Below the pieces are notes generated by a model. The model made no database searches. It was not told the DNA's origin and saw only the letters and a program-made list of their open reading frames with translations. Below are positions 59,200 through 59,552 of a stretch of 64,000 nucleotides of DNA, in pieces. The translations under genes and the position numbers were made by a program. Within the stretch, counting starts at the first letter, position 1. Each line of letters starts with the position of its first letter. This stretch comes from Alistipes sp. (lineage in GTDB: Bacteria > Bacteroidota > Bacteroidia > Bacteroidales > Rikenellaceae), in assembly GCA_031285405.1 (NCBI GenBank), contig JAITWH010000013.1, positions 17,956 to 81,955 of the forward strand. Reading direction: 5' to 3'.

Positions 59200-59231
59200 T
59201 TGACAAAGGGGGTGTCGATGTGCTATGTTTG
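59200..59231 (+). promoter_or_regulatory. Bacteroidetes-type promoter TTGACA-18 nt-TATGTTTG
   Basis: -7 box fits TAnnTTTG; TTGACA 18 nt upstream. Confidence 0.75.
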
Positions 59232-59342
59232 CACCGTCAAACCGGCGAATTTTTCTCGGTCTGATCACGGCGGCCACCAACAAAAAAACGGAGTTTTCCC
59301 AAACCCAAAAAACACCTCAAAAACACCCAAAAAAAAATCGAA

Positions 59343-59552
59343 GGGGCTCCAACCCCGAAAAACTCAAAAAGGGACAACCGTCTCGCAAATCTCAAAACGG
59401 GCACTCAATCCCGCGAACCACAAATGGGACTTCAGTCCCGCGAACTTCAAGAGAGGACTCGCGCCCCTCGCCAAAAACCTCAAACTGGACTTCAGTCCCA
59501 CAAATCTCAAACGGGGTTAAAATCCCGCAAACTCACAGGGTCTCCGGAGACC
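59343..59552 (+). repeat. Array of about 8 short hairpins at ~28-nt spacing with A/C-rich linkers (RCRAAnCTCAAA-like)
   Basis: GGGGCTCCAACCCC, GGGACAACCGTCTC, CGGGCACTCAATCCCG, GGGACTTCAGTCCC, a weak unit near 59460, GGACTTCAGTCC, CGGGGTTAAAATCCCG, GGTCTCCGGAGACC. Confidence 0.75.

What the first reader, a model, noticed from the sequence alone, without database searches (positions are those of the whole stretch)
59200..59552. Strong promoter feeding an array of about eight hairpins at ~28-nt pitch
A near-canonical Bacteroidetes promoter (TTGACA-18-TATGTTTG) precedes an untranslated stretch with hairpins centred near 59349, 59377, 59405, 59432, 59460 (weak), 59492, 59519 and 59545. Stem sequences vary (GGGG/CCCC, GGGACT/AGTCCC, CGGGGTT/AATCCCG with a G-U pair, GGTCTCC/GGAGACC) but pairing persists, and linkers share an A-rich CTCAAA-like word. 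Conserved pairing with changing sequence suggests a selected structured RNA or protein-binding array rather than slippage. I recognise no named class for it.
Basis: partly seen in the sequence, partly recalled or inferred. Interest (0 to 1): 0.88.

Follow-up and report, generated by a model that had tools for sequence, protein, structure and literature searches.

The report
Repeated hairpins before capsid genes
In one bacterium of the gut-associated family Rikenellaceae, the untranslated start of the message for a set of inherited phage-shell genes contains about eight small RNA hairpins repeated every 27-28 bases; the repeat is real and its pairing has been kept, but it was found in this one species only and what it does is not known.

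Summary
A strong Bacteroidetes promoter (TTGACA 59200; TATGTTTG 59224-59231) precedes an untranslated leader of about 485 nt with eight hairpins at 59343-59553 (2.7 expected; 0/500 shuffles reach 8). The sequence repeats at 26-28 nt (z up to 6.1). Stem letters vary between copies, yet 33 of 40 stem pairs are kept, against 21 if the same changes fell at random.

Context: the leader belongs to an operon of phage-head genes (head protease, capsid, portal in relatives), present nearly always once in 126 of 268 family genomes and behind the same promoter in 67 relatives. The array is not conserved: a structural model finds a cluster only in this genome; same-genus leaders have three, two, one or no hairpins. 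The surrounding operon is also full of tandem repeats.

Best reading: a stem-loop unit was tandemly duplicated in one lineage and kept its pairing, giving the capsid mRNA a beaded 5' leader that probably stabilises the message or presents spaced single-stranded A-rich sites to an RNA-binding protein. The mechanism is inferred; neutral repeat growth is nearly as likely. Not an Rfam family, not a dispersed REP, no forward terminator to support antitermination.

The parts
59200..59231 (+). promoter TTGACA-18-TATGTTTG; transcription start expected near 59236-59240 (inferred)
   Evidence: conserved before the same operon in 67 relatives
59232..59718 (+). untranslated A/C-rich leader of the operon (A 0.37, C 0.33, G 0.15, T 0.16)
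59335..59556 (+). array of about eight hairpins at 26-31 nt pitch
59343..59356 (+). hairpin 1 GGGGCTCCAACCCC
59371..59384 (+). hairpin 2 GGGACAACCGTCTC (one G-U pair)
59398..59413 (+). hairpin 3 CGGGCACTCAATCCCG
59425..59440 (+). hairpin 4 TGGGACTTCAGTCCCG (closest to consensus)
59453..59469 (+). hairpin 5, weak and out of register, GAGGACTCGCGCCCCTC
59487..59498 (+). hairpin 6 GGACTTCAGTCC
59512..59527 (+). hairpin 7 CGGGGTTAAAATCCCG (one G-U pair)
59538..59553 (+). hairpin 8 GGGTCTCCGGAGACCT; least like the other copies
59719..60177 (+). first gene, 152 aa, basic and repeat-rich N-terminus; C-terminus resembles the small first gene of relatives
60489..60926 (+). second gene, 145 aa, family-wide marker of the operon
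61114..62190 (+). third gene, 358 aa (51% identical to the 339-aa gene of G006)
62354..64000 (+). start of the ~789-aa gene, open to the contig end, matches broken up by in-frame repeat insertions

Best explanation
The array is part of the 5' leader of the mRNA of an inherited phage-head (capsid) operon. A stem-loop unit (GGG..CCC stem plus A-rich linker), of the kind seen one to three times in leaders of some relatives, was tandemly duplicated to about eight copies in this lineage, and stem changes survived mainly where pairing was kept. Shown: promoter, operon, repeat, kept pairing. Inferred: the RNA forms a row of small hairpins joined by single-stranded A-rich linkers of about 10-14 nt, which raises the stability or translation of the long capsid message, either passively by hindering decay or by offering evenly spaced single-stranded sites to an RNA-binding protein.
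For: Conserved promoter directly upstream; operon conserved family-wide in single copy; hairpin number and + strand folding above shuffles; 33/40 stem pairs kept against 21 expected; G-U pairs in two stems; similar hairpins at the corresponding place in G006 (three) and G010 (one); other spacers of the operon are A/C-rich but unstructured. The genome encodes two RRM_1 matches, and RbpB of B. thetaiotaomicron binds mainly single-stranded regions (PMC11697453). A 485-nt leader is long: the median 5' UTR in B. thetaiotaomicron is 32 nt (PMC7366714).
Against: No expression, binding or half-life data. The array is absent from relatives that have the same promoter and operon, so it is not needed for the operon. 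Loops are not conserved, linkers diverge as much as loops, shuffle-based covariation is not significant, and the units were picked as hairpins. RbpB's main role is reported not to be protection of its ligands.
Confidence: 0.42

Rival explanations
1. Neutral tandem-repeat growth: spacers and genes of this operon have been filling with repeats in this lineage; a hairpin lay in the duplicated unit and the array has no function of its own.
For: Many other tandem repeats in the same operon, in spacers (12/24-nt period at 60178-60488) and in genes; array absent in relatives; covariation not significant.
Against: Copies differ at 26% of stem sites and 38% of other sites from the consensus, yet 33/40 stem pairs remain against 21 +/- 2.3 for randomly placed changes. 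The other spacers of the operon did not become structured.
Confidence: 0.36
2. Multivalent protein-binding RNA: the hairpins themselves are recognised by a product of the operon (small basic first protein or capsid), giving feedback control of the capsid message.
For: Regular pitch; first gene has a basic, repeat-rich N-terminus; analogy with coat-protein operators of RNA phages (own knowledge).
Against: Loops and upper stems vary between copies; the small gene and the hairpins do not co-occur reliably: G010 has a hairpin without the gene, other genera the gene without such hairpins.
Confidence: 0.09
3. Antisense-facing terminators: read on the - strand, each hairpin is followed by a T-rich linker, a row of weak intrinsic terminators that blocks transcription running into the promoter from downstream.
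For: Two of the hairpins pass a terminator scan on the - strand; the A-rich linkers precede the stems on the + strand.
Against: Terminator-like sites in the region are fewer than in shuffles (4 against 7.4); most T runs are short; folding above chance is stronger on the + than on the - strand; no antisense promoter is known.
Confidence: 0.06
4. Antitermination site of the nut or put kind of phages, modifying RNA polymerase so that the long operon is read through.
For: Place just downstream of the promoter of a phage-derived operon; hairpin next to a short repeated single-stranded word.
Against: No intrinsic terminator on the + strand from the leader to 62400; relatives express the same operon from the same promoter without an array; the linker word CTCAAA does not fit boxA (own knowledge).
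Confidence: 0.04

Closest known systems
Structured 5' UTRs and 5' stem-loops that stabilise bacterial mRNA (general class)
   Same: Hairpins in the untranslated leader behind a strong promoter
   Different: About eight tandem copies instead of one or two; effect on mRNA not measured
REP/BIME palindromic repeats
   Same: Short GC-rich palindromic units in tandem in a non-coding stretch
   Different: Single locus, within a transcribed leader; not dispersed in the genome
Coat-protein operator hairpins of RNA phages
   Same: Hairpins in the mRNA of a capsid gene cluster
   Different: Loops not conserved; unrelated capsid type; binding untested
FopS/GibS sRNAs and the RRM protein RbpB of Bacteroides
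   Same: Non-coding RNA of the same order with single-stranded stretches beside a hairpin; the genome has RRM_1 proteins
   Different: Not an sRNA family, no FopS or other Rfam match; binding untested

Membership tests
Any Rfam 15 RNA family | score at or above the family's gathering score | tested here: not met
   0 matches in the window; only chance-level matches for the leader
Bacteroidetes sigma-ABfr promoter | -7 motif TAnnTTTG at 59224-59231 | tested here: met
Bacteroidetes sigma-ABfr promoter | transcription starts a few bases downstream | not testable with these tools
   needs 5' RACE or dRNA-seq
REP/BIME repeats | many dispersed copies in intergenic regions of the genome | tested here: not met
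   BLAST, pattern and structural model find only this locus beyond chance level
Intrinsic terminators | GC-rich stem followed by a T run on the transcribed (+) strand | tested here: not met
   no + strand site in the array; two weak sites on the - strand
nut/put antitermination sites | downstream terminators that are read through | tested here: not met
   none found on the + strand between the leader and 62400
mRNA-stabilising 5' hairpin | stem-loops in the 5' untranslated leader | tested here: met
mRNA-stabilising 5' hairpin | longer half-life or higher output with the stems intact | not testable with these tools
   needs a reporter and decay assay
Conserved structured RNA element | same structure with compensatory changes in homologous loci | tested here: not met
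   array absent from homologous leaders; copies within the array keep pairing but do not pass a covariation shuffle
Coat-protein operator | conserved loop and stem letters bound by the protein | tested here: inconclusive
   loops vary; binding not testable here

The most novel reading that the evidence does not exclude
The hairpin row is a multivalent protein-binding RNA in the mRNA of a domesticated capsid operon, through which the capsid or a partner controls, or even packages, its own message.
Probability: 0.05. Interest if true: 0.88.

Novelty: new variant of a known kind. Interest (0 to 1): 0.38.

Why it matters
If the pairing is under selection, this is a natural case of a tandemly amplified hairpin leader whose copy number differs between related species (8, 3, 1, 0) on a conserved promoter and operon, a ready series for testing what repeated 5' hairpins do to mRNA in Bacteroidales. 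It also points to a family-wide, single-copy phage-head operon in Rikenellaceae whose capsid relatives bear only 'hypothetical protein' names where a name is given.

Tried and rejected
Coding repeat: rejected; the pitch breaks the frame and the long ORF over the array (59225-59704) starts inside the promoter. Dispersed repeat or REP: rejected. Known RNA family: none. tRNA: none. Array in viral contigs: no exact match to an 18-nt piece; of eight viral contigs with a capsid relative one (L147) has the same promoter type, with no array in the 150 nt after it. Other R1 hits in the genus: the two inspected lie in coding-like sequence and are taken as chance. The small first gene as partner of the hairpins: presence does not track them. 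Literature: nothing found on such a leader or on a gene transfer agent in Alistipes.

Full report
What is there. The window is G000:C12:17956-81955 of a draft genome of 1.9 Mb, 82% complete. Relatives found by protein search are titled Alistipes MAGs, and named capsid homologues belong to Rikenellaceae, so the family is taken to be Rikenellaceae. At 59200-59231 lies TTGACA-18-TATGTTTG, and from 59232 to 59718 there is no gene that this promoter could plausibly serve before the ATG at 59719. Eight small hairpins stand between 59343 and 59553.

More than chance? Yes. Dinucleotide shuffles of 59335-59556 give 2.7 +/- 1.1 hairpins of this strength and none of 500 gives eight; the local folding energy is 3 sd below shuffles on the + strand and 1.3 sd on the - strand. 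Letter identity peaks at lags 26-28, z 4.4-6.1. Tandem Repeats Finder does not list the array, because copies are only about 60-73% alike. In the window as a whole it is not the most structured place: its best block ranks 16th of 1150. The full-length minimum-energy fold also pairs some units with each other, so separate hairpins are the local, not necessarily the only, fold.

Kept pairing. With the copies in register, 33 of 40 possible stem pairs hold; placing the same number of stem changes at random leaves 21 +/- 2.3 (0 of 1000 reach 33). Caveats: the units were chosen as hairpins, hairpin 8 may not be a true copy, and copies may have exchanged sequence. A formal shuffle of 3' letters among seven units is not significant (116/500 on cells paired, 66/500 on covariation). 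Loops vary (TTCA twice, otherwise different), and linkers diverge about as much as loops (0.375 and 0.406 against 0.263 in stems). What has been kept is a small GC-based stem, not a letter code.

The operon. The 145-aa protein at 60489 has relatives in 126 of 268 genomes of the family and 13 of 22 genera, nearly always one copy, and in none of the 24 genomes of other families searched. In relatives the operon goes on with a 339-aa protein, a protein of about 789 aa, a ClpP-type head maturation protease (phrog_94, 1.2e-40), a capsid-like protein (weak: phrog_1623, 0.005; Pfam GP7 capsid, 0.005) and a portal protein (phrog_11226, 1.5e-19). G000, G004, G006 and G007 share upstream neighbours: a short lipoprotein-like gene and a SPOR-like gene, with ubiE before them in G000, G006 and G007. 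It looks like an inherited, domesticated head module; no terminase was recognised among the genes read in G007 before host genes resume. In the window the 789-aa homologue begins at 62354 and runs to the contig end, its matches broken by repeat insertions in one frame.

The leader in relatives. A strict search found the same TTGACA...TTTG element in 68 loci, 67 of them relatives. The array is not conserved. In the genus, G006 has three hairpins right after the promoter (CGGGCGGTCTGTCCG, GGGCGGTCTGCCC, CGGGCGTTCAGCCCG), G010 one (TGGGACGTTCTGTCCCG), G004 two of other sequence, G007 and G008 none in short leaders, G005 and G002 none of this type. G006's leader as a whole is not more structured than its shuffles (z -0.75), so its hairpins are suggestive only. 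Two leaders of another genus (L120, L136) have one GGGCGTTCGCCC at the same early position. A model of the unit finds clustered matches only in this genome among 268, with stricter filters. A single early stem-loop may be old; the eight-fold array is new in this lineage.

Origin. Tandem duplication is the natural origin: CTCAAA recurs four times just before stems, and the operon in this genome is crowded with other repeats, in spacers and, in frame, in genes. The other spacers of the operon are A- and C-rich but unstructured; kept pairing sets the array apart from them.

Mechanism. Nothing here measures function. The most economical inference is a beaded leader that affects stability or translation of the capsid message, passively or through a protein that binds single-stranded RNA; the genome encodes two RRM_1 matches, and RbpB of B. 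thetaiotaomicron prefers single-stranded regions, though protection is reported not to be its main role (PMC11697453). Neutral growth of repeats is nearly as likely. A coat-protein-like array, an antisense-facing terminator row and an antitermination site are less likely, for the reasons given under the rivals.

Verdict. Observation confirmed, interpretation partly supported: a real, lineage-specific structured leader, a new variant of a known kind, of moderate interest until strain-level or bench data show selection or effect.

Noticed in passing
59719-64000; relatives L040, L044, L050: Family-wide, nearly always single-copy phage-head operon in Rikenellaceae (126 of 268 genomes, 13 of 22 genera) behind one conserved promoter, with head protease, capsid-like and portal genes but no terminase recognised in the one copy read through; possibly domesticated or gene-transfer-agent-like.
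   Followed up: partly
leaders of relatives, e.g. L092, L100-L103, L136-L142; absent from the window leader: Leaders of this operon carry DnaA-box-like motifs TTWTYRACA: 141 in 68 leaders against 3.9 in shuffles, but 7 against 5.4 upstream of the promoter; 113 of 141 on the coding strand; eleven leaders have an inverted pair of the form TGTYGAWAA-NN-TTWTYRACA.
   Followed up: partly
7010-7160, 8800-8920, 10835-10980, 36920-37090, 40660-40820, 43695-43840, 49225-49385, 50340-50480, 51085-51190, 51880-52000: About ten intergenic elements of 100-170 bp that fold into long hairpins whose two arms are complementary runs of 7-nt repeats (AATCATG, TTAGTGA, AATTGAA or AATTAAG types); the heptad differs between elements but the arms match.
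   Followed up: partly
2594-2696: A second 28-nt-pitch array: about four palindromes of the type GTGTTACATATGCGACAC with TTTAGCAAA-like linkers, between ORFs 1237-2547 and 2687-3433; looks like an operator array.
   Followed up: no
59851-59949 and 62800-63970: Genes of the operon carry tandem-repeat insertions with periods that are multiples of 3 (21, 24, 33, 39, 45, 90 nt), so reading frames stay open.
   Followed up: partly
60178-60488, 60927-61113, 62191-62353: Other spacers of the operon are strongly A/C-rich on the coding strand (G+T 13-24% in the first two) and almost unstructured.
   Followed up: partly
L024, just after the promoter: In G029 the transcript would start with GCGGTGTATTTCGAAATACACCGC-TTTTTT, a terminator-like hairpin at the very 5' end, a possible attenuator.
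   Followed up: no
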